From a virus, in IMG/VR virus record IMGVR_UViG_3300029268_000006, positions 1 to 64,000 of that record: a stretch of 64,000 nt of DNA; one strand, written 5' to 3'. How positions within the stretch are numbered: the first letter of the stretch is position 1; each line of letters starts with the position of its first letter. Shown piece by piece: positions 33,563 through 64,000 of the stretch. Made by a program: the position numbers and the translations under genes. Under the pieces are notes generated by a model, which worked only from the letters and a program-made list of their open reading frames with translations, had not been told where the DNA came from and ran no database searches.

Positions 33563-34558
33563 ATGATATTAGATGAATTTGTTTTAATGTATTGGAATAA
33601 TTATGATAAAAAATATTATGTTGATAAAGGATATGTTTTCACAAAAAGATTTGATAAATTTGAAGTAAATATTAAAGATTTAATGTTGTGTAGTAACTTG
33701 AAGATAAATGTTAAATGCGATATTTGTGGTAAAGAAAAACTATTATCATATCGTAAATATTTAAAAAATATGAATAATGGTGATTATTATTCTTGTTCTC
33801 AGAAATGTTCTCATAATAAATCTAAACAAACTAGTTTAAAAAATTATGGAGTGGAACATTATTTACAATCTGATATTGGTATAAAAAGAATACAAAATAC
33901 ATGTTTGGAAAGATATGGATTTGAAAATGTATCTAAAAACAATGAAATAAAAAAAAGGAAAAAACAAACTTGTTTAAAAAATTATGGAACTGAATATCCA
34001 AGTCAATCGAAAGAAATACAAGAAAGATATAAACAAACTTGTTTAAAAAAATATGGTTGCGAATGGCCTTGGTTAAATATAGAAGTGAAAGAAAAAGTTG
34101 AAAATACTATGTTAAAAAAATATGGAACAAAAAACCCAACACAAAACATAAATATAATGAATAGTATAATTCAAACACAAATAGATAAATATGGTGAAAT
34201 TTGGAAAAATCATGTTCCTAGATATAATCCAAATTCAATAATGTATTTAGATTTAATATCAAAAAAATTAAATATACCAATTCAGCATGCTTTAAATGGT
34301 GGTGAAAAGAAATTCATAAAATATTGGATAGATGGATATATTGATAAATATAATATATGTATTGAATGGGATGAAGAATGTCATAATTTAGAAAATGATA
34401 AAAAAAGAGATGAATATTTAAAAGATAATTTTAATTGTAAAATGATAAGAATTAGACAAAAAACATTTCTTAAAAATATAGATATTGAAATTGAAAAAAT
34501 AGTTGATGAAATAAATGATTATATTTTATCATTAAAATCGTATGAAAAGAAAAAATAA
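33563..34558 (+). CDS. Putative homing endonuclease (PD-(D/E)XK-like) with YG-repeat modules
   Basis: 331 residues. N-terminal Cys motif 'VKCDICGKEKLLSYRKYL...CSQKC', then four to five 'K.TCLKKYGTEYPSQS'-type modules, then a nuclease-like end 'YWIDGYIDKYNICIEWDEEC' with 'NCKMIRIRQKTF'. The module order is that of the Vsr-like homing enzymes, but the catalytic core is shorter and variant. Just upstream (33437-33512) 'FSDFTNESPELITEIF' looks like a fragment of a disrupted gene. Confidence 0.6.
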   Translation: MILDEFVLMYWNNYDKKYYVDKGYVFTKRFDKFEVNIKDLMLCSNLKINVKCDICGKEKLLSYRKYLKNMNNGDYYSCSQKCSHNKSKQTSLKNYGVEHYLQSDIGIKRIQNTCLERYGFENVSKNNEIKKRKKQTCLKNYGTEYPSQSKEIQERYKQTCLKKYGCEWPWLNIEVKEKVENTMLKKYGTKNPTQNINIMNSIIQTQIDKYGEIWKNHVPRYNPNSIMYLDLISKKLNIPIQHALNGGEKKFIKYWIDGYIDKYNICIEWDEECHNLENDKKRDEYLKDNFNCKMIRIRQKTFLKNIDIEIEKIVDEINDYILSLKSYEKKK

Positions 34559-34644: not shown

Positions 34645-36252
34645 TTAGATTTCAACTGCTTCAATCTTGTGAATCAAAGCCTGACGATCTTGTTCCAACA
34701 TTTTCATTAAATCGAAAACTTTATCTGAAAATCCAGCCAAAGCGTAAACTTTGTTTTCTGGGAATTGTAAAGTTCCGTAACCTTTAAGGTCAATAGAATA
34801 GATATGAGACTGACATTTATACTTTTTACAGTATTCTTTGAAAGTTGTTGTTGGTGCGTGATATCCAACCCAACCTTGTTCATCAGATAAAATAATTATT
34901 CTATCGTAAGCTTTATTGGCTTTTTGAAAGATACTATGGAAATTAGTACCAGCACAAGCGAACTTGTAAATGTTTGTAATAGTCATCAAACTATCAGATG
35001 GGTTATAGTTTTTGTATTCTGCATGATCATCAAATCTCATCAAATCACAACCATTACGTTTTGCGATAGCGGCTGCGAATTGTGCACCAGCTTCAGCACA
35101 ACTAATTGTACTTTTTGCTACTTTATTTGATGTCATAGAACCAGATGTATCTAAAACAACCAATGTTTCACCATCAAATTTCGGAATATTATTAAGTGAA
35201 ATTTCAGTAGCTTCGTTGATGGCAGTTAGAACTTTTCTGTATTTAGAATCCGAAGTACCAAGACTTTGTAATTCTTTGTAAGCTACAAGAAATCTGAATG
35301 GTAAAACCAATGATTTCTTAATTAACTTTTCATCAGTTAAAAGTTCACAAGCGACATCAATCATTTCCGGTGCTTGTTCAACAATGTTTCTTAGGTTACG
35401 AAGTAAAGCGAAGTAACCGATTTTACGTTCACTAAGAAGCTTTGTCCAAGCGTCTTTTTTAAGGTCTTGTTTTTCATCTTCATTGTTAGCTATTTGACCA
35501 GCTTTTGACAATTCAGATTCCCAAGTGTCTTTACTACGAAGTAAATCAATTACAAGTGCTTCAAGAGCGTGAATTTTGATAGTTCCACCTTCTTGTGATT
35601 TAACCCAATTAAGTTTCTTTTCAATTTCTTTCTTATCTTCAGCTTTCTTTTTCAAAGATAATTTCTTGTTAAGTATGTCAATGTATTCTTGACGATTAAC
35701 AGTTACCAAAAATTTATCACCCTGTGTTGGTACTGGGTGTACCAAGTTGGCAATATCAACTAATTTGAAGTCTTTACCTTCACCTCTCCATTTTCCAAGT
35801 TGGTATGCATCGAATCTTGAAATAGCTTCAGCGAAGCCTTTTTTCATCGAATTGGTAATTTTGTTGTCTTTCTTTTTCATGTAGTAAGCCAAGATTTCCA
35901 TCATATCATCCGGTCTACGGACAATTTTGTTATAGAAATTTTTTGCCCAAGGTAAGTTGGACAAATATTTAGCCAATTCAGCAGCTGTAATATGTGATAT
36001 GGATCTCATACCAAATTCATTACGGGCATAAAGTGCAGATTTAGCTACAAAATCCGGTTGTGTCTTACCAATAAGATCAATCAATCTGTTATTGGTTTGT
36101 TCTTCAGTTTCGTAAAAAGAATTCTGTACAAAGGATGTTAACAAAATAGAAACTAATTCTAATTTATTTGATTCTTTGTAGGCTTCACCACCTGCTAAGT
36201 TAACAGTTTTTTCTGCTTTGTAAGCAACTTTTTTTTCATTGAATTTTGACAT
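34645..36252 (-). CDS. rsr: Ro60/TROVE-domain RNA-binding protein (Rsr-like)
   Basis: 535 residues. The N-terminal ~330 residues form the HEAT-like TROVE ring ('SKFNEKKVAYKAEKTVNLAG', 'YARNEFGMRSISHITAAEL', 'GYFALLRNLRNIVEQAPEMI'). The C-terminal vWA domain has the MIDAS motif 'LVVLDTSGSMTSNKVAKST' and 'AGTNFHSIF'. Ro60 proteins bind misfolded RNAs and small Y RNAs; in bacteria they work with exoribonucleases. A few phages carry them. The gene has a GGA-containing ribosome site 8 nt upstream of its ATG and, ~50 nt further up, the terminator of a separate structured RNA. Higher GC than its neighbours suggests transfer. Confidence 0.88.
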   Translation of the reverse strand: MSKFNEKKVAYKAEKTVNLAGGEAYKESNKLELVSILLTSFVQNSFYETEEQTNNRLIDLIGKTQPDFVAKSALYARNEFGMRSISHITAAELAKYLSNLPWAKNFYNKIVRRPDDMMEILAYYMKKKDNKITNSMKKGFAEAISRFDAYQLGKWRGEGKDFKLVDIANLVHPVPTQGDKFLVTVNRQEYIDILNKKLSLKKKAEDKKEIEKKLNWVKSQEGGTIKIHALEALVIDLLRSKDTWESELSKAGQIANNEDEKQDLKKDAWTKLLSERKIGYFALLRNLRNIVEQAPEMIDVACELLTDEKLIKKSLVLPFRFLVAYKELQSLGTSDSKYRKVLTAINEATEISLNNIPKFDGETLVVLDTSGSMTSNKVAKSTISCAEAGAQFAAAIAKRNGCDLMRFDDHAEYKNYNPSDSLMTITNIYKFACAGTNFHSIFQKANKAYDRIIILSDEQGWVGYHAPTTTFKEYCKKYKCQSHIYSIDLKGYGTLQFPENKVYALAGFSDKVFDLMKMLEQDRQALIHKIEAVEI

Positions 36253-36955: not shown

Positions 36956-39382
36956 TTAAATATTATATTTTTTTGGCCAAAATTGTTTTTTTTGTGAATT
37001 TGGCCAAAATAATGGATTTTTATTTTCATCATCATTTTTTCTAAATGGGTCAGGTTCTCTCCAAGGATTTCGTTTAAATATTTCGTTTGAATCATCTTCT
37101 CTCCAAGGATTATTTGGTTTAATAGAATTTATTTGTGACATCACATCAACTTTATTTATGAATTGTTTTCTAGCTAATCTGAATGATTTGTAGTTTATTG
37201 TATTTTCAAGTGGTGCAGTTTCTAAGAAATTTTTAACAATTTCTTTTTCTATATCTGTTGCATTAAAGTCAATATAAGTGTCAATTATATTTTTCCAATC
37301 AATATGACTATAAATAGTTGCCAAGTTTATAATTGACATCACACAGTCATCAGTACCACTTTGAGATTTATATGTCACTTCACCATTTGCCAATTCTTTT
37401 TTGGAGAATGAACTTAATTCTATTATGGTTCCACTGTGATGTAATACCATCGCGTCTTTTTTGATACAATCTTGAAAATCTTTTATCATTAGTTTCTTGC
37501 CTTTTTCTCCACTTTTCACAAGGAAACCAACAGTTAGGTAAGTATCAGTTTCATTTTGTTTGTAACGAACAAATACCGAATCACCATAATTGTTGATATC
37601 ATTAAATACATGTTTCATATTATCTAGAAGTCTATCACCCAGATTTTTATTTTTTTCAAGAACTATTTTTACTTTTTCAGAATCGAATAATTCAAATCCT
37701 ATTAAATATAATATATGTGATATTTCATTTGCGTTATAAATATTATTTTGAAAAACACCAATTTGTTCCAATTTAAATAAATCATATTTGCTTTCATACA
37801 TTAGTCTTTTTCTATTTATAATATCTTTATCTTTCATCATTAATCTAAAAATATTTATCACAGTGTAATTTTGTGCAAGTCCTTCACCCATGTCAATTCC
37901 TATAAATATATTATAATTTTTTACTTGTCTAATATCAAATAGATCCGGTCTATTTTTTATCCATTTTAAATCTGTATAAGGAAATTTTAATTTATTTTCA
38001 AATTGTGGTATTTCTTTATATTCAAATGGTGTTTCATTATTAGTTAAACTTTCAAATATAATACTATCAAATAATAAATTTTGATCTGTTATAAATTGAA
38101 GTCCGTATTCTTGTTTGAATTTATCTTCACCACCTATAAGATTTGTTTCTTCTTCTTCCCAATTAGAAATATATGCAATTTCAGTAAAAGGAATTTCACT
38201 TTCAAATTCCATATTGTCATCTCTTGTTTCTAAATTTGTTGCAATTCTTAATGAACGGATACTGGAAATATCAGATTGAAGTGATGGGGTTATTTCATCA
38301 TCTTCGTAAAATTTAATATGATGTATAGCTATACCATCAAGTACCTTATCATAAAGTTTATAACCCAATTCATTTCTCAAATAATTCAAAACATAACCTT
38401 CAGTTAATCCGTGTTTTTTGAGTTTGTCGTCAATGAATTTTATTTTAGTATCCCTCCTACCTTTTATTTGATACCAATAAACTTTAAGTGCTTTATATGG
38501 GTTTTTATGTGGATCACCTTCTGGTAATTCGGCATCTCTTAATAATTCAAAGAATAAATTTCTACCGTCCGGGGTTGATGTAATAATAATTTTTGAATTT
38601 GTAATTGATGATACAGTTGGTACAACGGATGAATAATAAGCTCTAATTATATTATCTGGAATTTTAGCAAACTCATCGAGATATAGTAAATCTATTGTAA
38701 AACCAATGGCCGGTTCTTTGGATCTATTTTGTGTTTGTATTCTACTACCATTTTCAAAAGATAGTGATCTTTCGTTCCAGTTGTTTATACCGGCCTTTAA
38801 GTAGAATGGTAATAATTTATATATGTCTTTTATTTTTCTTATAATTTCTTTAACAGTATTAGATACGTTAGCAACAACCATAACCCCTTTATCTTTATTA
38901 AATAAAACAGTCCACAACATTACAATTGCAGCACTAACTGTATTTAAACTTAAAATATCATTTGTATAATAACTATGTTCATTGGATTGAATTGATAAAT
39001 CGAACATAGAAACTTTATAGTTTTGTTTAATAATAGATTTTATTTTTGATGGACCCCTTTTGGTTAAAACTATATCATCGTGTGTTAAATCTTTAACAAA
39101 TTTAATTATATGATTTTCACAAAAAACACCATGAACATCCGCACAATTTAATTTAATACCATTTTCCAATTTTAGTGTATAAAATGTATATGGTTGTGTT
39201 AAATTAATTTCTTCAATTGGAACAAAACCATAATCTGTTTCGACTAATAAATTTTCTAATGGTAAAAAATTTAATATTTTTTTTGTTTCATCATTTTCAT
39301 CTAAATCTATGTTTCTATATTCATAATTTTCTAATTTTTCAATTAAAAAATATATAATATTTCTTAATATTTTCTTAAACAT
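36956..39382 (-). CDS. terL: Large terminase, C-terminal part preceded by split-intein IntC (fractured gene)
   Basis: 808 residues. Residues 1-147 are the C-terminal intein piece. 'FLPLENLLVETDYGFVPIEE' and block B 'LENGIKLNCADVHGVFCENH' come first, then it ends 'EHSYYTNDILSLN|T' (His and terminal Asn, +1 Thr). The extein starts TVSAAIVMLWTV, completing the Walker A from the other ORF (SRQSGK|T). Walker B 'LLYLDEFAKIPD', coupling motif 'ITSTPDGRN' and nuclease residues ('IFIGIDMGEG', 'VLEKNKNLGD', 'GTDDCVMS') are present. The C-terminus carries two 'NPWRE' repeats. Trans-splicing with 41556-42089 should give a full packaging motor. Confidence 0.85.
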   Translation of the reverse strand: MFKKILRNIIYFLIEKLENYEYRNIDLDENDETKKILNFLPLENLLVETDYGFVPIEEINLTQPYTFYTLKLENGIKLNCADVHGVFCENHIIKFVKDLTHDDIVLTKRGPSKIKSIIKQNYKVSMFDLSIQSNEHSYYTNDILSLNTVSAAIVMLWTVLFNKDKGVMVVANVSNTVKEIIRKIKDIYKLLPFYLKAGINNWNERSLSFENGSRIQTQNRSKEPAIGFTIDLLYLDEFAKIPDNIIRAYYSSVVPTVSSITNSKIIITSTPDGRNLFFELLRDAELPEGDPHKNPYKALKVYWYQIKGRRDTKIKFIDDKLKKHGLTEGYVLNYLRNELGYKLYDKVLDGIAIHHIKFYEDDEITPSLQSDISSIRSLRIATNLETRDDNMEFESEIPFTEIAYISNWEEEETNLIGGEDKFKQEYGLQFITDQNLLFDSIIFESLTNNETPFEYKEIPQFENKLKFPYTDLKWIKNRPDLFDIRQVKNYNIFIGIDMGEGLAQNYTVINIFRLMMKDKDIINRKRLMYESKYDLFKLEQIGVFQNNIYNANEISHILYLIGFELFDSEKVKIVLEKNKNLGDRLLDNMKHVFNDINNYGDSVFVRYKQNETDTYLTVGFLVKSGEKGKKLMIKDFQDCIKKDAMVLHHSGTIIELSSFSKKELANGEVTYKSQSGTDDCVMSIINLATIYSHIDWKNIIDTYIDFNATDIEKEIVKNFLETAPLENTINYKSFRLARKQFINKVDVMSQINSIKPNNPWREDDSNEIFKRNPWREPDPFRKNDDENKNPLFWPNSQKKQFWPKKYNI

Positions 39383-40520
39383 TTTTATTTTTTATTAATT
39401 TTAAAATAATAGATTTTATATATTTATTATTATTTTTCCATTCTTTTTCCCATACATGTATTAAATTGATATTTTTATTTTTACAATTATTTGTTTTATC
39501 ATTATGATAATTTTCATTTTTATAGATATTACTATGCCAATAATCACCGTTATATTCAAATGCTAAATTTAAATCTGGTAAATAAATGTCTAATTCTTTA
39601 CCATTTAATATTTTTCTATCATTTTTAATTATTACCCCTTTATAATTTTCTTTTATGAATTTAAATAATTTTCTTTCACCGTCTGATGTTAAAGAATGTT
39701 CTGGATAACATATTGTACATGTTGTTATGTTATGTGACAACCTATTATGAAATAAATTAATATTTATTTCATAATTATGTCCTTCTTCACAACAACAGAA
39801 ATATTTTTTATTTTCGTAATCTATTTTTTTAATAAATAAATATTTAGATAACATTTTTTTATTATAATATTTTTGTGTTTTTTCTTTATGTTCTGGTAAT
39901 TGTGATACATTTTCAATATTATATTTTGTTTTACATGTTTTTTTAATTTTTATAATGTTATTGTAATTTTCATTATCATATTTTTTGTTTTTTGTATTTT
40001 TCGCTTTTTCAACAAAAAATGAATTTTGTGCTGGTCTATCACAATTGTATTTTTCATTATTTGTTTTTATAGATTTTTGTAAAATTTCTTTATTTTGTTG
40101 TGGATAGTCACAATCATATTTTTCATTATTTGTTAATTTAATTTTATTTTTAATTTCTTCATTTTGAAAAACATTTTCAAATCCATAAATTTCCAAATTT
40201 GTTTTTTTACATTTATTTCTATTATTATAAGTTTTATTATTATATTTTTTTTGACATGTTAATTTGTTTTTAATGGATGAACATTTGTGACAAGTATATA
40301 AATTATATTTATTAAAATTATTATTATAACTTTGATAAGATATAATTTTTTCACATCCACAAATATCACAAATTCCTGTTATTTTAACATGTGATTTTAA
40401 TGAGACGTGTTCTATTTTTATTAAAATTTCATCATTTAAATTACAAACATAACCAAAATTTCTAAATTTTTTAATTGTTTTGTCTGCAATTTTGATGTTT
40501 ACTTCTTTTTCTTTTATCAT
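39375..40520 (-). CDS. Vsr-like (EDxHD) homing endonuclease inside the terL intein break
   Basis: 381 residues. N-terminal 'ICDICGCEKIISYQSY' zinc motif, several 'NNEKYDCDYPQQNKEILQKS'-like modules, a second Cys motif, and the nuclease core 'ELDIYLPDLNLAFEYNGDYW' with 'KNINLIHVWEKEWKNN'. It overlaps the start of the IntC-terminase ORF by 8 nt, so their translation may be coupled. This is the arrangement known from fractured phage genes. Confidence 0.8.
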   Translation of the reverse strand: MIKEKEVNIKIADKTIKKFRNFGYVCNLNDEILIKIEHVSLKSHVKITGICDICGCEKIISYQSYNNNFNKYNLYTCHKCSSIKNKLTCQKKYNNKTYNNRNKCKKTNLEIYGFENVFQNEEIKNKIKLTNNEKYDCDYPQQNKEILQKSIKTNNEKYNCDRPAQNSFFVEKAKNTKNKKYDNENYNNIIKIKKTCKTKYNIENVSQLPEHKEKTQKYYNKKMLSKYLFIKKIDYENKKYFCCCEEGHNYEININLFHNRLSHNITTCTICYPEHSLTSDGERKLFKFIKENYKGVIIKNDRKILNGKELDIYLPDLNLAFEYNGDYWHSNIYKNENYHNDKTNNCKNKNINLIHVWEKEWKNNNKYIKSIILKLIKNKNV

Positions 40521-40528
40521 TTTTTATT

Positions 40529-41506
40529 TTATTTTAAAAATTTTAAACATTTTTGAATTGTTTTTTCTGGATCGTTTTTATAATCCGATTCCCATATGAT
40601 CAAAATGCTAAAATTTTTCTTTTCGGCTGCTAATATTTTTTCTTTATCGTGTTTCCAAATATCTTCGGATTTTAACCATTTTCTATATGGGTGTGGATTA
40701 TCATTATTTTTCCATTTGATTGGATTTGCGTGATACATATCACTATTAAATTCGATTATCTTTTTTTTATTTTTATCAGTAAAATCATATTGATAAAATT
40801 TATTTTTTTCAGATAAATTTTCATTTTTTTCAGATATGAAATATTCTTTGTTTTTAGTTGCAAAATAAACATTTATTCTATCTTTAATTTCATATTGTTC
40901 TAAAATATCATAGAAAAGTTTTTGAGATATTTTAGAGAACCCACATTTTAAATTTCCATTTTCCAATAAAGATTTTTGCCATTTATTTTGACGTTCATTC
41001 CATATTTTTAAACCATCAATTTCACCGTGTTTTTCTATATATTTTTCTAAAGTAAATGTTCTTTGTCTTTCAGATAATTTTTGTTTTGCATCAATTTCAT
41101 TGTATCCTTTCTTTAACCAATATTCAATTCTGGTAGATTGTTGTTCTGGTGTTATATTTTCATGAACCTTTTTTGAAAATTCAATAGCTTCATTTTCATT
41201 TTCATACTTTATAAAATTTTTTGAAAAAGGACTTCTCTGTTTTCTTTGTTCTTCTGTTGTTTTTGATTTACTGTTTGGATTTTTTTGTCCTGTTATTTTG
41301 TCTGAAAATAATTTTTTATATTTTTCTTGTTTCATGTGTAATCCACCATTTTTAGTTGTTTCTTTATAATCGGATTCTGAATATAAAGGTTCACCGGGAT
41401 ATAACTTTAAATATTCGTCTGATGTTAAACCATGTTTTTTTAAATGTCTACCATATATTCTGGTTGATTTTTTTCCACATATTTTACAAGTAATTAAATT
41501 TTCCAT
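40529..41506 (-). CDS. Second EDxHD-type homing endonuclease inside the terL intein break
   Basis: 325 residues. 'ITCKICGKKSTRIYGRHLKK' with 'HGLTSDEYLKLYPGEP' is a MucR/Ros-like zinc finger. The middle holds 'RIEYWLKKGYNEIDAKQKLS' modules. The core is 'YQYDFTDKNKKKIIEFNSDM' followed by 'YHANPIKWK' and 'NFSILIIWESDYKNDPEKTI'. Clearly related to the endonuclease in the helicase break at 62629. A late-type box is 14 nt upstream. Confidence 0.75.
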   Translation of the reverse strand: MENLITCKICGKKSTRIYGRHLKKHGLTSDEYLKLYPGEPLYSESDYKETTKNGGLHMKQEKYKKLFSDKITGQKNPNSKSKTTEEQRKQRSPFSKNFIKYENENEAIEFSKKVHENITPEQQSTRIEYWLKKGYNEIDAKQKLSERQRTFTLEKYIEKHGEIDGLKIWNERQNKWQKSLLENGNLKCGFSKISQKLFYDILEQYEIKDRINVYFATKNKEYFISEKNENLSEKNKFYQYDFTDKNKKKIIEFNSDMYHANPIKWKNNDNPHPYRKWLKSEDIWKHDKEKILAAEKKNFSILIIWESDYKNDPEKTIQKCLKFLK

Positions 41507-41555
41507 TGTTGTTTTTATTTTTATATATTAATAGCAAGCGGACAAAATGGGATAT

Positions 41556-42089
41556 TTATTCTACATATTTTAGAATTTTATAAAGAAATAATTTAGTTTT
41601 TTCAATAATGGTTAATTTTCTATATTTTTTAAGCGTTTCGTAATATAATTCACCAATTGAAATTTTAAAAATATATCCATTTTCATCTTTTAAATTTGCT
41701 AACGTATTGAAAATTAAGCACTTACCGGATTGTCTACTAGCCATTAGTATCGAATATCTGTTTTCAGTATATAATTTTATAATATCTTTTTGGTATTCAC
41801 GAAGTTTCATTTGTCCGATGCTACCATCTTCCAATTTAATTTTACAGTAGTGTTCCGCGAAGTAATATACAGATAATTTACATCTGACATATTCACGTAT
41901 CTCTTCTTCTGTCATAGCGAATTTTAATCCCGGTCTTCTAATACCCGGATTATTCTTAAACCACAGTCTTTCAGTTAGTTTAAGTGGTAATGCTAATCTT
42001 TCTTTCTCTTGAATTTCTTTAACTTTTTCAGTAGTTAATATGTGACTTTGATCAATATTTTTATTTTTGGGTGATGTTGTTTTTGCCAT
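41556..42089 (-). CDS. terL: Large terminase, N-terminal part ending in split-intein IntN (fractured gene)
   Basis: 177 residues. Residues 1-123 are terminase ('LKLTERLWFKNNPGIRRPG', 'IKLEDGSIGQMKLREYQKDI', then Walker A 'SILMASRQSGK'). At residue 124 the intein begins, 'CLIFNTLANLKDENGYIFKI', and stops after ~54 residues. That is far shorter than a canonical ~100-residue IntN, so this is an atypical early split, as in the AceL-TerL type. The cut falls between Lys and Thr of the ATP-binding loop, so the unspliced halves should be inactive. Confidence 0.87.
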   Translation of the reverse strand: MAKTTSPKNKNIDQSHILTTEKVKEIQEKERLALPLKLTERLWFKNNPGIRRPGLKFAMTEEEIREYVRCKLSVYYFAEHYCKIKLEDGSIGQMKLREYQKDIIKLYTENRYSILMASRQSGKCLIFNTLANLKDENGYIFKISIGELYYETLKKYRKLTIIEKTKLFLYKILKYVE

Positions 42090-53564: not shown

Positions 53565-54746
53565 ATGGATAGAAAAAACGTATTCGACTCAACTTTGAAA
53601 TATTTTAATGGAGATACTTTAGCAGCTGATGTTTGGGTGAATAAATATTGTTTAAAAAATGTTGAAAATGGTGAAATAGTATATTATGAAAATACACCCG
53701 ATGATATGCATCGAAGAATATCAGATGAATTATATAGAATTGAAAACAAATATAAAAATCCTCTTGAAAAAGAAAAAATATTTGATTTACTTAAAAATTT
53801 TAAATATATTATACCACAGGGATCTCCAATGTCTGGTATAGGTAATAATTTTCAAATAGTGAGTTTAAGTAATTGTTTTGTCATTGGACATGAATATGAT
53901 TCATATGGTTCCATTATCATGTGTGATGAAGAACAGATTCAATTGATGAAAAGAAGGGGTGGTGTAGGACACGATTTATCACATATCAGACCAACAGGAA
54001 CCGTAGTTCAAAATTCCGCGTTGACATCAACTGGTATTGTTCCGTTTATGGAAAGATATTCAAATTCAACAAAAGAAGTGGCACAGGATGGTAGAAGAGG
54101 AGCTTTAATGCTTACAATTTCAGTCAAACATCCGGACGCTGAAAATTTTATTGATGCAAAACTAGAGCAAGGAAAAGTGACAGGTTCAAATATTTCAATA
54201 AAAATTGATGATGAATTTATGAATTGTGTTTTAAATGATACACCATATATTCAAAAATTTCCAATAAATTCAGACAATCCAAAGGTTACTAAAAGTATCG
54301 ATGCTAAAAAATTATGGAAAAAAATAATTTACAATGCATGGAAATCAGCAGAACCGGGGGTTTTATTTTGGGATACTGTTATTAGAGAATCTGTTCCAGA
54401 TTGTTATAAAGAAGATGGTTTCACTACAATCAGTACTAATCCTTGTTTATCTGGTGATTCTCTTATTACAACAACAAAGGGTGAAATATCAATTAAAGAA
54501 ATTTTTAATAATTTCAAAAATGAAAAATATCAAGTTTTAACATATAATGAAAAAAATAAAAATTTAGAATATAATAATGTATCTGATGCTATTTTAACAA
54601 AAAGAAATGCCAATATAATAGAAATTGAATTAGTTGATGGAACTACATTAAGATTAACACCAGATCATAAAGTTTATACGAAAAATAGAAAATGGATAGA
54701 AGCATCAAAATTAACAAATGATGATATATTAATAAAAATAGATTAA
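53565..54746 (+). CDS. nrdJ: Class II ribonucleotide reductase, N-terminal part ending in IntN (fractured gene)
   Basis: 393 residues. Residues 1-293 are reductase: 'YIIPQGSPMSGIGNNFQIVS' with 'LSNCFV', 'RRGGVGHDLSHIRPTGT', 'DGRRGALMLTISVKHPD', ending 'TTISTNP'. At residue 294 the intein starts, 'CLSGDSLITTTKGEISIKEI', with block B 'LRLTPDHKVYTKNRKWIEAS', and stops after 100 residues. This is the canonical late split. The cut is at the NP|CGE active-site motif, so splicing is required for activity. The enzyme makes deoxynucleotides using adenosylcobalamin. Confidence 0.9.
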   Translation: MDRKNVFDSTLKYFNGDTLAADVWVNKYCLKNVENGEIVYYENTPDDMHRRISDELYRIENKYKNPLEKEKIFDLLKNFKYIIPQGSPMSGIGNNFQIVSLSNCFVIGHEYDSYGSIIMCDEEQIQLMKRRGGVGHDLSHIRPTGTVVQNSALTSTGIVPFMERYSNSTKEVAQDGRRGALMLTISVKHPDAENFIDAKLEQGKVTGSNISIKIDDEFMNCVLNDTPYIQKFPINSDNPKVTKSIDAKKLWKKIIYNAWKSAEPGVLFWDTVIRESVPDCYKEDGFTTISTNPCLSGDSLITTTKGEISIKEIFNNFKNEKYQVLTYNEKNKNLEYNNVSDAILTKRNANIIEIELVDGTTLRLTPDHKVYTKNRKWIEASKLTNDDILIKID

Positions 54747-54748
54747 TA

Positions 54749-54796
54749 AATCCATGTGATTATTTTATATATAGGTATAAAATAATCACATGGATT
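54749..54796. terminator. 21-bp perfect inverted repeat after nrdJ IntN
   Basis: Left arm 54749-54769 and right arm 54776-54796 are perfect complements with a 6-nt loop. The stem lies between the IntN stop and the endonuclease ATG, and its right arm ends 1 nt before that ATG. It may attenuate transcription, hide the endonuclease start, or mark the element boundary. Confidence 0.8.
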
Positions 54797-54797
54797 G

Positions 54798-55562
54798 ATG
54801 GAAAAAATATTATCCTTTTTTAATGATGTAAAATTAAAAAAATTTAAAACAAGAAATGGTGGTTCAATTTATCATGATAAAGACAAAATAAAATCAGATA
54901 TTAGATATGATTTGGTTAAAGAATTTATAGAAAAAAATTATTATACTAATGGTATGGGAATAAAATCAATTATTAAAAAATATAATTTACCAATTACATA
55001 TTCTATTTTAAGATTTTATTTTATAAATTTTTTTAAAATTAAAATTAGAGATAATAAAGAAATAACAGATTTTATAAGAAAATCAAGAAGAGAAAAGGCA
55101 ACATATGAACGAGATAATAAAATTGGGTTTTTTAATCAAAATTTACAAGATAACCTTAAAATTAGAAATAGTACAATAAGAGGGATACAAGGTTATTATT
55201 TTAATATTTCATTAAATAAATATGTATGGTTGAGAAGTTCTTGGGAATATATTTTTGCGAAATGGTTAGATAAAAATAATTATAAATGGGATGTCGAAAT
55301 TAAAACTTTTGAAATTTCGAATAATAAAAAATATAGACCCGATTTTTTTATATTTGATAATAATGATAATATTATTAAAATAATAGAAGTTAAAGGTTAT
55401 TGGAAAGATAAACTTTATAAATTTGTAGAACTAAAAAATATGTTAAATAAATCTAATATTGAATTTATTTTGGTTGATAAAATAAAAACATATTCATATA
55501 ATGGATTTAAACAAGATTTGAATAATTGGAAAAGAGAAAGAATTTTGGATTTAAAAAAATAA
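54798..55562 (+). CDS. PD-(D/E)XK homing endonuclease inside the nrdJ intein break
   Basis: 254 residues from the ATG at 54798, at the foot of the hairpin. 'NKYVWLRSSWEYIFAKWLDK' followed by 'YRPDFFIFDNNDNIIKIIEV' and 'KGYWKDKLYKF' gives the catalytic P-D...E-x-K. The N-terminal half is helical and probably binds DNA ('GMGIKSIIKKYNLPITYSIL'). It is a different nuclease type from the EDxHD enzymes in the other two breaks. Confidence 0.8.
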   Translation: MEKILSFFNDVKLKKFKTRNGGSIYHDKDKIKSDIRYDLVKEFIEKNYYTNGMGIKSIIKKYNLPITYSILRFYFINFFKIKIRDNKEITDFIRKSRREKATYERDNKIGFFNQNLQDNLKIRNSTIRGIQGYYFNISLNKYVWLRSSWEYIFAKWLDKNNYKWDVEIKTFEISNNKKYRPDFFIFDNNDNIIKIIEVKGYWKDKLYKFVELKNMLNKSNIEFILVDKIKTYSYNGFKQDLNNWKRERILDLKK

Positions 55563-55569
55563 TTTTAAT

Positions 55570-57333
55570 ATGAAAGAGATAAAAATTAAAAAAATAAACA
55601 TTAAACAAAATGATGATGTATATGATTTAAAAATAGAAAATAATCATAACTTTTTTGCAAATAAAATATTAGTTCACAACTGTGGTGAGATTCCATTATG
55701 TCCAAATGATTCTTGCCGCTTATTGGCAATAAATTTATATAATTTTGTAAAAAATCCATTTACTAAAGATCCAATTTTTGATTGGGAATGGTTTAAAAAA
55801 TGTGTTTTGTATGCAGAAAGATTCATGGATGATATTATAGATTTGGAAATTGAAAAAATTGAAAAAATTATTGAAAAAATAAAATTAGATCCAGAACCAG
55901 AATATATGAAAAAAGTGGAAATGGAAGTTTGGAATAAAATTATGAATATGACTAAAAAAGGTCGTAGAACTGGATTGGGTGTTACAGCAGAGGGAGATAT
56001 GTTAGCTGGTATGGGTTTAATTTATGGAACCCCGGAAGCAACTGAATTTTCAACTAAAATTCATAAAACACTCGCAATCGAAGCTTATCGTTCATCCTGT
56101 ATTTTAGCTAAAGAAAGAGGTACATTTCCTATATATGATTACAATAAAGAAATAAATAATCCATTTATTAGCAGATTAAAAAATGATGATCCAGAATTGG
56201 ATGAAATGTTAAAAAAATATGGAAGAAGAAATATATCATTACTTACAATTGCACCAACCGGCAGTGTGAGTATTTTAACACAAACGACATCAGGTGTCGA
56301 ACCTGTTTTTCTTGTGTCTTATAAAAGAAGAAGAAAAATAAATCCATCAGATAAAGATATGATGGTGAATTTTGTTGACGATGAGGGAATTAAATGGCAA
56401 GAATATAATGTATTTCATCATAAATTTGAAGTTTGGTTGAAAAACAATGGATATAATATCGATGAAGTGAAACTTATGAAGGAAGAAGATTTGAAAGAAA
56501 TAATCAAATTATCACCTTACTATAAAGCAACATCAAATGATGTTGATTGGGTTGAAAAAATTAAAATGCAAGGTAGTATTCAAAAATATGTCGATCATTC
56601 TATTTCAGTAACAGTAAATTTACCGAAAACTGCAACAGAAGAAATGGTTTCCCAAGTGTATGAAACCGGATGGAGTAGTGGGTGTAAAGGCGTTACTGTA
56701 TATAGAGATGGTTCAAGACAGGGTGTTATTATTTCTAATGAAAGTAAAGATAAAAAAACATCAACAAATAATATTCCAAAAAGGCCAGTAAAATTACAAT
56801 GTGATGTACTTAGATTTGTAAGTAGAGGTAATAAATGGGTTGGTTTTGTTGGTTTAATGGAAGATACTGATGAAACCTATCCATATGAAATGTTTACTGG
56901 ATTGGCTGATGATTTTGTTATTCCTAATTATGTCGAAAAGGGTTTTATTAGAAAGGAAAAAATAAAAGATAGTGAAAACAATTTAATTTCCAGATACGAT
57001 TTTATTTACCATGATAAAGATGGATTTGAAGTGACAATGCAGGGTCTTAATCGTGCATTTGATAGAGAATATTGGAATATTGGTAAATTATTAAGTGGTT
57101 TACTTCGTCATAGAATGCATTTTCCATCAATTATAAAAATCATAGAATCTTTAAAATTAGACGGTGATACTTTGGGTACTTGGAAAAAAGGTGTTATCAG
57201 AATTTTAAAAAGATATATCAAAGAAGGTGAGATGGAAACTGATGAAGAATGTCCAATTTGTAAATCTAAAAATTTGGTTCATAAAGAAGGTTGTGTTTCA
57301 TGTTTGGACTGTCAATGGTCGAGATGTTCTTGA
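55570..57333 (+). CDS. nrdJ: Class II ribonucleotide reductase, C-terminal part preceded by IntC (fractured gene)
   Basis: 587 residues. Residues 1-37 are IntC: 'DDVYDLKIENNHNFFANKIL' then 'VHN|C'. The extein continues CGEIPLCPNDSCRLLAINL. Reductase motifs include 'GRRTGLGVTAEGDMLAGMGL', 'LLTIAPTGSVSILTQTTSGV', and the B12-enzyme C-terminal domain 'TGWSSGCKGVTVYRDGSRQG'. The zinc/thioredoxin-like Cys tail is 'CPICKSKNLVHKEGCVSCLD' then 'CQWSRCS'. A TnpB remnant follows directly. Confidence 0.9.
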   Translation: MKEIKIKKINIKQNDDVYDLKIENNHNFFANKILVHNCGEIPLCPNDSCRLLAINLYNFVKNPFTKDPIFDWEWFKKCVLYAERFMDDIIDLEIEKIEKIIEKIKLDPEPEYMKKVEMEVWNKIMNMTKKGRRTGLGVTAEGDMLAGMGLIYGTPEATEFSTKIHKTLAIEAYRSSCILAKERGTFPIYDYNKEINNPFISRLKNDDPELDEMLKKYGRRNISLLTIAPTGSVSILTQTTSGVEPVFLVSYKRRRKINPSDKDMMVNFVDDEGIKWQEYNVFHHKFEVWLKNNGYNIDEVKLMKEEDLKEIIKLSPYYKATSNDVDWVEKIKMQGSIQKYVDHSISVTVNLPKTATEEMVSQVYETGWSSGCKGVTVYRDGSRQGVIISNESKDKKTSTNNIPKRPVKLQCDVLRFVSRGNKWVGFVGLMEDTDETYPYEMFTGLADDFVIPNYVEKGFIRKEKIKDSENNLISRYDFIYHDKDGFEVTMQGLNRAFDREYWNIGKLLSGLLRHRMHFPSIIKIIESLKLDGDTLGTWKKGVIRILKRYIKEGEMETDEECPICKSKNLVHKEGCVSCLDCQWSRCS

Positions 57334-61370: not shown

Positions 61371-61521
61371 TTTCGATAACATTGATGATTCAGTCGATCT
61401 AAAAAGAAGATATACCCAAGAACAATTACTGAAGATATGGGATGATACATATCCTAAATTATCAGAAATTAGTAGTGATAAAATTATTATAACAATTACA
61501 CCACCTGAAAGGTGTTTATAA
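61363..61521 (+). CDS. Very small hypothetical protein
   Basis: 52 residues, starting MINFDNIDDSVDLKRRYT. Start overlaps the previous stop by 8 nt, and the stop overlaps the convergent helicase stop. Acidic and helical, then 'KIIITITPPERCL'. Coding status moderate. Confidence 0.4.
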   Translation: MINFDNIDDSVDLKRRYTQEQLLKIWDDTYPKLSEISSDKIIITITPPERCL

Positions 61522-62610
61522 TTTTCCTGTTCCCTCTAAGTTATCATTTTCAATGGATAAATATCTTGGATGAAAATCGAAACCAATTATTTCACCTTTA
61601 TGATCACCGTCGCGAAGTTTAAGAATTTTTAAACGATATTTGTTATTCTTTCTCATTTCGTTATTTCTGATAATAGCCCATACACAATCCGCTGTTTCAG
61701 CGACAGCTTTACTTTCTGGAATATCCGCCAACTTAATATCATTTGCACCCCAAACAGATTTATCGGTTTGTGTAGCTGTTATCATAGCAACGTTGTATTT
61801 GTCTGCTAAATACCTTAATCCTTCTGCCAGATGTTTTCCTTTTAAGAAAAGGTTGTTACCCATTTCTTTATGTAATTTATCAACAGACATGAGATTAATG
61901 TAGTCAATAATAATCATATCGAATTTAACATTTCTAACTTCAATATATTTATTTATAAGATTATCCAAATCATCGATTGTACATTGACCAGTATTGAATT
62001 TTTTGACCCAAATTTTTCCAATTTTCCCATTATTAAATAAACCTAGATTTGTTGTGTTTTTTAATTGTGATATTTTTGATTTAATAAAATTTGGATCTTT
62101 ACTTAATTCGTCATATTGATCTGCATCAATTTTTAATCTCATTGCACCTAAACGTTTCATAACTTTTCTCTTAGATAATTCGACTGAAACTACTAATACG
62201 TTCGCACCACTATCTGCTGCGTTTTTTGCAGTATTATATAACCACATTGAATTATGACTCAAAATATCATTTGTCCAAAATCTATGATTTTCATCGTTTA
62301 GTTGAAAATCAAACATATTTGATTTTTTATCATGAATATCTTTATAACATTTACAAACAACTTCCACACCATTTTTTGTTTGTATTTTATCACCTGATAC
62401 TAAGTCTTTAACAAAAACTTCGTTCATATTTTCATCAAAAACAATATGGGTATCTGCACATATTAATTCAGATGTTTGTGTTATTAAAACCCATTCATCA
62501 TATTCTATTGTTTTACCTATTGATTTGATATCTGACCAACCATTATCGGTTTCTATTTGCCATTCATCTATTTCTACTGTATCTATAAATTTTCTTTCAA
62601 AATCTAACAT
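61516..62610 (-). CDS. DnaB/gp41-like replicative helicase, C-terminal part preceded by IntC (fractured gene)
   Basis: 364 residues. Residues 1-120 are IntC of an atypically split intein. 'EWQIETDNGWSDIKSIGK' and block B 'TSELICADTHIVFDENMNEV' come first, ending 'HRFWTNDILSHN|S'. The extein starts SMWLYNTAKNAADSGANVLV, restoring Walker A as GETGVGK-S. Then Walker B 'FDMIIIDYINLMS', 'AMITATQTDKSVWGANDIKL' and the arginine-finger region 'YRLKILKLRDGDHKGEIIGF'. It unwinds the replication fork. Spliced in trans with the ORF at 63658. Confidence 0.87.
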   Translation of the reverse strand: MLDFERKFIDTVEIDEWQIETDNGWSDIKSIGKTIEYDEWVLITQTSELICADTHIVFDENMNEVFVKDLVSGDKIQTKNGVEVVCKCYKDIHDKKSNMFDFQLNDENHRFWTNDILSHNSMWLYNTAKNAADSGANVLVVSVELSKRKVMKRLGAMRLKIDADQYDELSKDPNFIKSKISQLKNTTNLGLFNNGKIGKIWVKKFNTGQCTIDDLDNLINKYIEVRNVKFDMIIIDYINLMSVDKLHKEMGNNLFLKGKHLAEGLRYLADKYNVAMITATQTDKSVWGANDIKLADIPESKAVAETADCVWAIIRNNEMRKNNKYRLKILKLRDGDHKGEIIGFDFHPRYLSIENDNLEGTGKL

Positions 62611-62628
62611 TTTTTATTTTATTCTTTT

Positions 62629-63657
62629 TTAACCATTCAAAAAATCTATACACGTTTGAATAGTTTTTTCTTTATGAAATTTATAATCACATTCCCATAC
62701 AATTAAAATATTATATCCAACATCTTTTATAGAATCAATTTTCAATTTATCTTTTTCCCAAATTTCATATGCAAACATTTGGAGATATTTATGAAAATAA
62801 TTTTTATTATATGTTTTAGGATTACAGTGCCAGTAATCACCGTTGAATTCTATTATTTTTTTATTATATACAAAATCATATGAGAATGTTTTTCCCAATT
62901 CTTTAAAATGTCTAAAAAATTGTTTTTTTCCGTAATGAACATTTTCTAATTTTATTTTTTCCAAAATATTTTCAAATAATTCTAATTCTGGTCCGGAATA
63001 ATTATCATATTTAAATTTTACAAAATCACCATTTTTATATTTGGCTTCTATTTTTTCACTCCATTTATTTTGTCTATTATTCCATATTTCTAGACCTTTA
63101 ATTTCACCATATTTTTCTATACATTTTTCTAATGTGAATGTTTTTTGTCTTTCCGATACTTTATTTTTAGATTCATCTTCCGTGAATCCTTTTTTCATCC
63201 AATATAATTTTTGTGTTGGGTTTACATCAGTATATAAGTGTTTATTATCGTGTCTTTTTTTTATTGCTTTTTTAGATATATCATTTTGTATATTTTTTAT
63301 TATTTTTAATGAATCTTCATTATTAAATCCTCTTTTCAACCAAAATTCGATACTTTGTCTGGATTTTTCCTTAAAAAAATTCTTATTTTTTTCGAATGAT
63401 TTTTGTAATCCAATTGTAATTTTTTCACCTCTGTTTAATGCTCTATCATTCATTAAATCAATAGCATCTTTTTTTGATAAACCATATTTATACATAAGAA
63501 ATTCATACGTTCCTGTGGCTCTAGTTTTTCCCAAACACTCTTTGGAATTACATATCCTATGATACCCCCCACTTATATTAAAAAAAATTGAAGGGTTTCC
63601 ACAGTAATAACAAGTACCTTCATTTTCCTTTTTAAAGTGTTTATCATAGTATTCAAA
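62629..63657 (-). CDS. EDxHD homing endonuclease inside the helicase intein break
   Basis: About 342 codons. The frame is open from the codon after the IntN stop and stays in the same frame as IntN. The N-terminal part 'EYYDKHFKKENEGTCYYCGN' with a second Cys pair (CNSKEC) is typical for this family, so coding starts upstream of the TTG at 63534, yet no in-frame ATG exists. Modules 'YWMKKGFTEDESKNKVSERQ' follow. The core is 'FSYDFVYNKKIIEFNGDYWH' and 'VGYNILIVWECDYKFHKEKT'. Start codon unresolved: a near-cognate start or stop read-through are options. Confidence 0.7.
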   Translation of the reverse strand, partial: FEYYDKHFKKENEGTCYYCGNPSIFFNISGGYHRICNSKECLGKTRATGTYEFLMYKYGLSKKDAIDLMNDRALNRGEKITIGLQKSFEKNKNFFKEKSRQSIEFWLKRGFNNEDSLKIIKNIQNDISKKAIKKRHDNKHLYTDVNPTQKLYWMKKGFTEDESKNKVSERQKTFTLEKCIEKYGEIKGLEIWNNRQNKWSEKIEAKYKNGDFVKFKYDNYSGPELELFENILEKIKLENVHYGKKQFFRHFKELGKTFSYDFVYNKKIIEFNGDYWHCNPKTYNKNYFHKYLQMFAYEIWEKDKLKIDSIKDVGYNILIVWECDYKFHKEKTIQTCIDFLNG

Positions 63658-64000
63658 TTACAGTTTTAGATAATTGAAAAATTCACCAATTGTAATTTCC
63701 TTTATTTCTTTGGTTTTTTTATTTTTAATTTTTATGTGAGTATTTGATTTACAGCACTTACCAACTCCAGTTTCACCAAGAAATACATTGAATGTTGATT
63801 TATCCCATCCACCGTGCAAAAGTGTGTCTACACTAGACCAACCGGATGTTATTTTATTTTTGGAAACTTCTTGTTTATGTGATTCTGGATCATCAAAATC
63901 GTCACCCAAATCTTCTTCATCTTCAAGTATTGATATATTACTAAATACTGTTTTTACTTTAGATAAAACATCGACAACATTATCATAATCTATTTCTTTC
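63658..64000 (-). CDS. DnaB/gp41-like replicative helicase, N-terminal part ending in IntN (5' partial)
   Basis: The frame is open to the window edge, so the N-terminus lies outside. Visible extein: 'VLSKVKTVFSNISILEDEED', 'KITSGWSSVDTLLHGGWDKS', 'TFNVFLGETGVGK'. The intein begins at the first Cys of 'CCKSNTHIKIKNKK' and stops after 32 residues ('GEFFNYLKL'). Taking the first Cys as residue 1 restores GETGVGKS after splicing, a perfect Walker A. The short IntN makes this an early, atypical split. Confidence 0.85.
   Translation of the reverse strand, partial: KEIDYDNVVDVLSKVKTVFSNISILEDEEDLGDDFDDPESHKQEVSKNKITSGWSSVDTLLHGGWDKSTFNVFLGETGVGKCCKSNTHIKIKNKKTKEIKEITIGEFFNYLKL

What the first reader, a model, noticed from the sequence alone, without database searches (positions are those of the whole stretch)
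36956..42089. Terminase large subunit fractured by an atypically split intein with two endonucleases in the break
terL is encoded by two ORFs 2.2 kb apart. The first ends in Walker A 'SRQSGK' plus a ~54-residue IntN; the second starts with a 147-residue IntC ending 'DILSLN' and resumes at Thr. The split between blocks A and B is the rare early type (AceL-TerL is the known precedent). Two EDxHD nuclease genes sit inside the break. Packaging would depend on protein trans-splicing.
Basis: partly seen in the sequence, partly recalled or inferred. Interest (0 to 1): 0.9.

Follow-up and report, generated by a model that had tools for sequence, protein, structure and literature searches.

The report
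Phage packaging gene split by intein
In this giant-phage genome the DNA-packaging motor gene is broken inside its ATP-binding site into two separate genes whose proteins carry the two halves of a self-splicing intein and must be stitched together after translation; in relatives, including the largest phage genome described in 2020, the two halves lie 9-12 kb apart, so the join can only happen between proteins.

Summary
terL is two minus-strand ORFs. TerL-N (42089-41556) ends SRQSGK plus a 54-aa IntN starting at Cys1. TerL-C (39382-36956) begins with a 147-aa IntC ending NDILSLN and resumes at Thr. Two homing-endonuclease genes lie between. Intact terL genes of close relatives read SRQSGK|TVSAA with no insert, exactly the predicted spliced product. 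IntC matches contiguous inteins at the same TerL site (E=5.5e-26) and solved inteins. IntN, IntC and exteins are all under purifying selection.

Decisive evidence against RNA splicing: in three relatives, including the complete 735-kb megaphage, the halves lie 9-12.4 kb apart with opposite-strand genes between, and the 735-kb genome holds no intact terL.

The kind is known: a fractured gene with a split intein and free-standing endonucleases, with an AceL/GOS-TerL-like early split. What is new: the Walker A site with +1 Thr, a 54-aa IntN (known early-split IntNs are 15-37 aa), conserved helical extensions at the split, dislocated halves, and three further fractured genes (nrdJ, dnaB-type helicase, ABC ATPase) in the same 132-kb contig. 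Splicing itself is inferred, not shown.

The parts
41721..42089 (-). TerL N-extein (123 aa), ends inside the Walker A motif at SRQSGK
   Evidence: phrog_5989 5e-21; 75-88% identical to intact or split relatives, dN/dS 0.05-0.19
41556..41720 (-). IntN, 54 aa plus stop, Cys1; block A followed by a conserved helical-looking tail RKLTIIEKTKLFLYKILKYVE
   Evidence: phrog_36964 (intein-bearing TerL family) runs from extein into IntN, residues 50-166; contiguous-intein HMM position 1 falls on Cys1 although E is only 0.66; dN/dS 0.26-0.44
40529..41506 (-). HEN-A, free-standing endonuclease gene (325 aa), MucR-like zinc finger plus VSR/I-Bth0305I-like C-terminal domain
   Evidence: ROS_MUCR 1.3e-4, phrog_22677, Foldseek top three VSR and I-Bth0305I but E 0.19-0.23 on a poor model; orthologue next to the N-half in G001, 63%
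39375..40520 (-). HEN-B, free-standing homing endonuclease gene (381 aa), DUF7487-type repeats plus VSR-like domain; overlaps the TerL-C start by 8 nt
   Evidence: phrog_3339 homing endonuclease 6e-39; DUF7487 1e-12; homologue overlaps the C-half start in G001 too
38942..39382 (-). IntC, 147 aa: helical head, CADVH block B, NDILSLN end, Leu instead of His as penultimate residue
   Evidence: 5.5e-26 to contiguous TerL inteins; profile hits gp41-1, NrdJ-1, Cat, VidaL structures; AlphaFold2 plus Foldseek Hint fold; dN/dS 0.07-0.28
36956..38941 (-). TerL C-extein: rest of the ATPase domain (starts TVSAA, +1 Thr) and nuclease domain
   Evidence: Terminase_6N 8e-9, T4 gp17 7e-26
53565..54746 (+). 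second fractured gene: class II RNR (nrdJ) N-part plus canonical 100-aa IntN (from 54444)
   Evidence: Ribonuc_red_lgC 2e-32, Intein_splicing 2e-10; NrdJ-1 structure 6e-17
54795..55562 (+). ORF in the nrdJ break, nuclease-like by eye (255 aa)
   Evidence: position between IntN and IntC; no Pfam match
55570..57333 (+). canonical 37-aa IntC (...FANKILVHN|C) plus RNR C-part
   Evidence: Ribonuc_red_lgC 1.5e-52, Intein_splicing 3e-6
61516..62610 (-). third fractured gene: DnaB/gp41-type helicase C-half with early-split IntC (62251-62610, ...NDILSHN|S)
   Evidence: DnaB_C 2e-17 from just after Walker A; IntC 3.5e-32
62629..63657 (-). HEN in the helicase break
   Evidence: 69% identical over 210 aa to the HEN in the terL break of relative L009
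63658..64000 (-). helicase N-half (runs on to 64371 of the record), ends GETGVGK|C plus a 32-aa IntN
   Evidence: IntN 0.0039; sequence; the intact relative W01 reads GETNVGKSMWLYN

Best explanation
This is a fractured terL gene of a Mahaphage-like giant phage. The two ORFs are translated separately. IntN (54 aa, on TerL-N) and IntC (147 aa, on TerL-C) associate, probably helped by the conserved helices at the IntN tail and the IntC head, and complete a Hint fold. By class-1 splicing (Cys1 N-S shift, transesterification to Thr+1, Asn147 cyclisation without the usual penultimate His) they join SRQSGK to TVSAA, restoring an unbroken Walker A and the full TerL ATPase-nuclease. Because the break lies inside the P-loop, neither half can be a working packaging motor. 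The endonucleases are free-standing homing enzymes, one associated with each half, that originally spread the insertion and are not needed for splicing. Shown: anatomy, intein homology, empty-site match, purifying selection, dislocation in relatives. Inferred: that splicing occurs, helix-assisted docking, homing activity, essentiality.
For: Intact relatives L011, L012 (75-77% identical to the C-extein) encode exactly ...SRQSGK|TVSAAIVMLW. Intein homology: 5.5e-26; gp41-1 7.5e-6, NrdJ-1 9e-6, Cat 1.4e-4, VidaL 0.011; the 50 listed Foldseek hits are inteins or related Hint domains. Contiguous inteins occupy the same Walker A site in phages Kuja, Magnus, VP-1, VPALA with +1 Thr. Purifying selection on IntN, IntC and both exteins. 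Dislocated halves with opposite-strand genes between: W01 12.4 kb, G001 12.3 kb, G003 9.0 kb. No intact terL in the complete 735-kb genome (completeness from PMC7162821). No Rfam intron match. Intein and extein trees broadly agree.
Against: No experiment. The TerL-N IntN alone is only weakly similar to contiguous inteins (E 0.66). The window record is a 132-kb fragment, so an intact terL further away in that particular phage cannot be excluded. The penultimate His is Leu, which often slows or alters C-terminal cleavage (established knowledge), though Leu is conserved across window, L009, L010, G001, G003 and W01. The AlphaFold model of IntC alone is of moderate confidence (pLDDT 66.7). Splicing efficiency and host conditions are unknown.
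Confidence: 0.9

Rival explanations
1. RNA splicing: the break is a group I or II intron carrying endonuclease ORFs, so the mRNA is joined and an ordinary contiguous (or no) intein results, as for terL in ICP1 and Jug phages.
For: terL of ICP1 and Jug phages is interrupted by introns with endonucleases (PMC10448857; PMC12363816). The two ORFs are collinear and only 2.2 kb apart in the window.
Against: No Rfam intron match in the window, nor a plausible one in the permissive scan of 36-43 kb. The breakpoints are the termini of a recognisable intein, each half with its own start or stop. In W01, G001 and G003 the halves are 9-12.4 kb apart with opposite-strand genes between.
Confidence: 0.04
2. 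Decayed terL: the fragments are remnants of an intein invasion, and another terminase does the packaging.
For: The record is incomplete; a TerL paralogue family exists in relatives (W01 699893-701044, L051).
Against: Purifying selection on all four segments; Cys1, block-B His, C-terminal Asn and +1 Thr conserved in the window, L009, L010, L013, G001, G003 and W01 proteins; the W01 paralogue is ~394 aa, ATPase-only, with SRQMGIT in place of SRQxGKT; no intact terL in W01.
Confidence: 0.04
3. Regulatory device: the split is kept because two separately controlled genes act as an AND gate that delays assembly of the packaging motor.
For: In W01, G001 and G003 the halves sit in different gene neighbourhoods; the break is inside the P-loop so that neither half is active; the HENs are lost in W01 and G003 but the split is kept.
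Against: Retention can be explained by the difficulty of precise loss alone; intact relatives L011 and L012 nest inside the split clade, so the split is dispensable; no expression data.
Confidence: 0.1

Closest known systems
Fractured genes with split inteins and free-standing homing endonucleases (Dassa et al. 2009, cited in PMC11766414 and PMC10448857; paper itself not held)
   Same: Essential phage-type gene broken at an intein, IntN and IntC on separate ORFs, VSR/EDxHD-like endonuclease in the break
   Different: Two endonucleases; early rather than canonical split; four such genes in one contig; in relatives the halves are far apart, each with its own endonuclease (G001) or none (W01, G003)
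AceL-TerL and GOS-TerL split inteins (PMC11766414, PMC13014065)
   Same: Naturally split TerL intein, split after the first helix, short IntN and long IntC
   Different: IntN 25 and 37 aa there, 54 here; +1 Cys there, +1 Thr here (Walker A site); extra helices at both split ends; Leu-Asn end
Contiguous TerL inteins of Ackermannviridae and relatives (Kuja, Magnus, VP-1, VPALA)
   Same: Same insertion point in the P-loop, Cys1 and Thr+1, about 36% identity over the second two thirds of IntC
   Different: Contiguous, 159-179 aa; hydrophilic linker where the window intein is split and carries helices
VidaL and gp41-1 / NrdJ-1 split inteins
   Same: VidaL is an early-split phage-type intein; the nrdJ split in this window is a NrdJ-1 relative (6e-17)
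   Different: VidaL IntN is 16 aa; gp41-1 and NrdJ-1 are canonical splits
Split DnaE of cyanobacteria (own knowledge)
   Same: Gene halves at distant loci joined by protein trans-splicing
   Different: Cellular polymerase, canonical split, no endonucleases

Membership tests
Intein (Hint) splicing domain | Sequence homology to known inteins | tested here: met
   for IntC; IntN only weakly (0.66) but in register
Intein (Hint) splicing domain | Hint fold | tested here: met
   (IntC alone, moderate confidence, TM about 0.5)
Intein (Hint) splicing domain | Nucleophile at position 1, block-B His, C-terminal Asn, nucleophile at +1 | tested here: met
   C1, H84 (CADVH), N147, T+1; conserved in relatives
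Intein (Hint) splicing domain | Penultimate His (usual, not obligatory) | tested here: not met
   Leu146, Leu also in L009, L010, G001, G003, W01; His in L013
Intein (Hint) splicing domain | Splicing activity | not testable with these tools
   needs co-expression
Early-split (AceL/GOS/VidaL/PolB16 type) split intein | Split between blocks A and B, on separate ORFs | tested here: met
Early-split (AceL/GOS/VidaL/PolB16 type) split intein | IntN 15-37 aa | tested here: not met
   54 aa (55 in W01, 69 in W03); range from PMC13014065. The DnaB (32) and ABC (34) inteins of the same phage do meet it
Fractured gene with split intein and homing endonuclease | Essential gene broken at an intein with a free-standing endonuclease in the break | tested here: met
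Fractured gene with split intein and homing endonuclease | Active homing into empty sites | not testable with these tools
   empty sites exist (L011, L012) but no cleavage assay
EDxHD (VSR-like) homing endonuclease | VSR-like fold, I-Bth0305I as structural member | tested here: inconclusive
   HEN-A: best three Foldseek hits are VSR and I-Bth0305I, E 0.19-0.23 on a pLDDT 51 model. HEN-B: phrog_3339 homing endonuclease
Group I/II intron-interrupted terL | Intron RNA between the exons | tested here: not met
   dislocated halves in relatives

The most novel reading that the evidence does not exclude
In the clade of the largest known phages, protein trans-splicing of TerL has become a fixed, endonuclease-free and obligatory step of genome packaging: the halves are encoded 9-12 kb apart in different operons and find each other through a docking-helix module added at the split site, a kind of split-intein association not described before.
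Probability: 0.4. Interest if true: 0.82.

Novelty: new variant of a known kind. Interest (0 to 1): 0.68.

Why it matters
It shows that the motor that packages the DNA of giant phages, including the 735-kb genome reported in 2020 as the largest, is encoded in pieces that can only be made whole by protein trans-splicing, which standard annotation misses (the 735-kb record carries no annotation, and the word intein does not occur in the main text of its paper). It gives a natural series from empty site through contiguous intein and adjacent split (with 1 or 2 endonucleases) to dislocated halves, which makes the question of how split genes arise and persist testable. It also supplies three early-split inteins coexisting in one phage, a natural test of orthogonality and a source of new trans-splicing tools.

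Tried and rejected
RNA intron explanation: Rfam at gathering threshold on the window and at E up to 1 on 36-43 kb gave nothing plausible. Single-sequence search of HEN-A and HEN-B against solved structures: nothing; profile of HEN-A: only weak hits, among them VSR. AlphaFold of HEN-A: poor (pLDDT 51). L014/L051 was first taken as an intact terL, but its neighbourhood and 413-aa length show it is the ATPase-only paralogue, so it is not counted as an empty site. Amphipathicity of the split-end helices: IntC head p 0.01-0.11, IntN tail not significant for most, so docking helices remain an inference. IntN+IntC as one chain and the contiguous homologues from annotated phage records were not folded, because the stated rules of the structure tool cover only unchanged window or fetched-contig proteins. 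The Dassa 2009 paper is not held, so statements about it rest on citing papers and memory.
Full report
Check of the observation. On the minus strand of the window, ORF 42089-41556 (177 aa) and ORF 39382-36956 (808 aa) are the two parts of a T4-type large terminase: PHROG family phrog_5989 matches the first at 5e-21 and the second at 7e-19, Pfam Terminase_6N matches the second (8e-9), and T4 gp17 structures match it at 7e-26. The first ORF ends in SRQSGK, the Walker A motif short of its Thr, followed by 54 residues starting with Cys; the second starts with 147 residues ending NDILSLN and continues with TVSAA. Two ORFs of 325 and 381 aa lie in the 2,173-bp gap. An 81-kb contig of the public viral collection is identical across the region, so the break is not a peculiarity of one record.

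It is an intein. A profile built from four contiguous TerL inteins of unrelated phages (Klebsiella Magnus, Vibrio Kuja, VP-1 and VPALA), all inserted at the same Walker A point with Cys1 and Thr+1, was run against 1,658 six-frame ORFs of the 132-kb record: it finds TerL-C at 5.5e-26 and, unexpectedly, two further IntC regions at 3.5e-32 and 1.4e-29. The three IntN halves score weakly (helicase 0.0039, ABC 0.023, TerL 0.66), each starting at the Cys after GK. A profile of IntC hits only inteins at the top of the solved-structure list: gp41-1, NrdJ-1, the consensus TerL intein Cat, and VidaL. The AlphaFold2 model of IntC alone (pLDDT 66.7) matches inteins and related Hint domains in the whole list of 50 best hits.

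The predicted product exists in nature. L011 and L012, with C-exteins 75-77% identical to this one and the same neighbouring genes, carry an intact terL reading SRQSGK|TVSAAIVMLW, with no insert. The same holds for the ABC ATPase of this phage (intact relative L040 LGKSGCGKSTILRYICG) and for the helicase (intact W01 GETNVGKSMWLYN).

The parts are maintained. Nei-Gojobori dN/dS between relatives is 0.05-0.19 for the N-extein, 0.26-0.44 for IntN, 0.07-0.28 for IntC and 0.08-0.18 for the C-extein. Cys1, the His of CADxH, the terminal Asn and Thr+1 are kept in the seven proteins compared there. The penultimate residue is Leu in window, L009, L010, G001, G003 and W01, and His in L013; W03 ends in Gln (NGILSSQ|T).

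RNA splicing is excluded in relatives. In the 735-kb megaphage LR756501 (W01) TerL-C lies at 609226-611508 and TerL-N at 623865-624413, 12.4 kb apart; in contig G001 12.3 kb and in G003 9.0 kb, all on one strand but with several opposite-strand genes between. W01 is described as a complete, curated, circular genome and the largest phage genome at the time (PMC7162821). Searching it with an intact TerL finds only the two halves and a truncated ATPase-only paralogue with SRQMGIT. Rfam finds no intron in the window. Intact terL genes sit at the place of the C-half, so it is the N-half that appears to have moved (inference from synteny).

The endonucleases. HEN-A has a MucR-like finger (1.3e-4) and a C-terminal part whose poor model is most like VSR and I-Bth0305I. 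HEN-B belongs to a homing-endonuclease PHROG (6e-39). In G001 the HEN-A orthologue (63%) stands next to the N-half and a HEN-B homologue overlaps the start of the C-half 12 kb away: one endonuclease goes with each half. L009, L010 and W03 have one endonuclease in the break, L013 one in the opposite orientation, W01 and G003 none. The nuclease part of the helicase-break HEN of this phage is 69% identical to the terL-break HEN of L009, so these genes appear to move between breaks. GC content of the inserted parts is 17-24% against 27-31% for the exteins.

Evolution. The extein tree groups window, L009, L010 with the intact L011, L012 (100/100), then W01, G001, G003, then L013 further out; the intein tree has the same larger groups. 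The simplest reading is an old split inherited mostly vertically, with loss or an empty state in L011/L012; repeated gain by homing is not excluded.

What is unusual. Reviews give natural early-split IntNs of 15-37 aa (PMC13014065) and +1 Cys for AceL/GOS-TerL (PMC11766414). Here IntN is 54-55 aa (69 in W03), +1 is Thr, and both split ends carry conserved helical-looking stretches that the contiguous homologues lack. The IntC head is predicted helical and modestly amphipathic, the IntN tail less so; that they dock is an inference. The contig holds four fractured genes: terL, a helicase and an ABC ATPase with early-split inteins at their P-loops, and nrdJ with a canonical NrdJ-1-like split intein. 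I found no paper in the held library describing dislocated terL halves or this many split inteins in one phage, but the library is partial and the searches were few.

Verdict. The system is a new variant of a known kind: a fractured gene with a split intein. The dislocation in relatives is the strongest argument that protein trans-splicing is really used, and is the most surprising part. No splicing was observed; a co-expression test would decide.

Noticed in passing
window 53565-57333 (+): Class II ribonucleotide reductase gene fractured by a canonical NrdJ-1-like split intein (IntN 100 aa, IntC 37 aa) with a 255-aa ORF in the break.
   Followed up: partly
window 61516-64000 and record to 64371 (-): DnaB/gp41-type helicase fractured in Walker A by an early-split intein (IntN 32 aa) with a HEN in the break.
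   Followed up: yes
record G000 84934-87010 (L002, L005): Phage-encoded ABC-transporter ATPase fractured in Walker A by an early-split intein (IntN 34 aa), no endonuclease in the ~0.4-kb break; intact in relative L040.
   Followed up: yes
W03 (LR756500) 39415-39831, L084: PhoH-like P-loop gene fractured by a split intein with a HEN in the break in the 462-kb phage.
   Followed up: partly
W01 699893-701044 (L034), L051, L019 6931-7749: Short ATPase-only paralogues of TerL, two of them with a degraded Walker A (SRQMGI); function unknown.
   Followed up: partly
window 34645-36252 (-): Ro60/TROVE-domain protein next to terL, conserved in relatives; Rfam found no Y RNA in the window.
   Followed up: no
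L019 4956-6845: IntC of the 462-kb phage ends in Gln instead of Asn (NGILSSQ|T).
   Followed up: no
window 33563-34558 (+): Another DUF7487/homing-endonuclease-like gene near terL, related to HEN-B (40% over 161 aa).
   Followed up: partly
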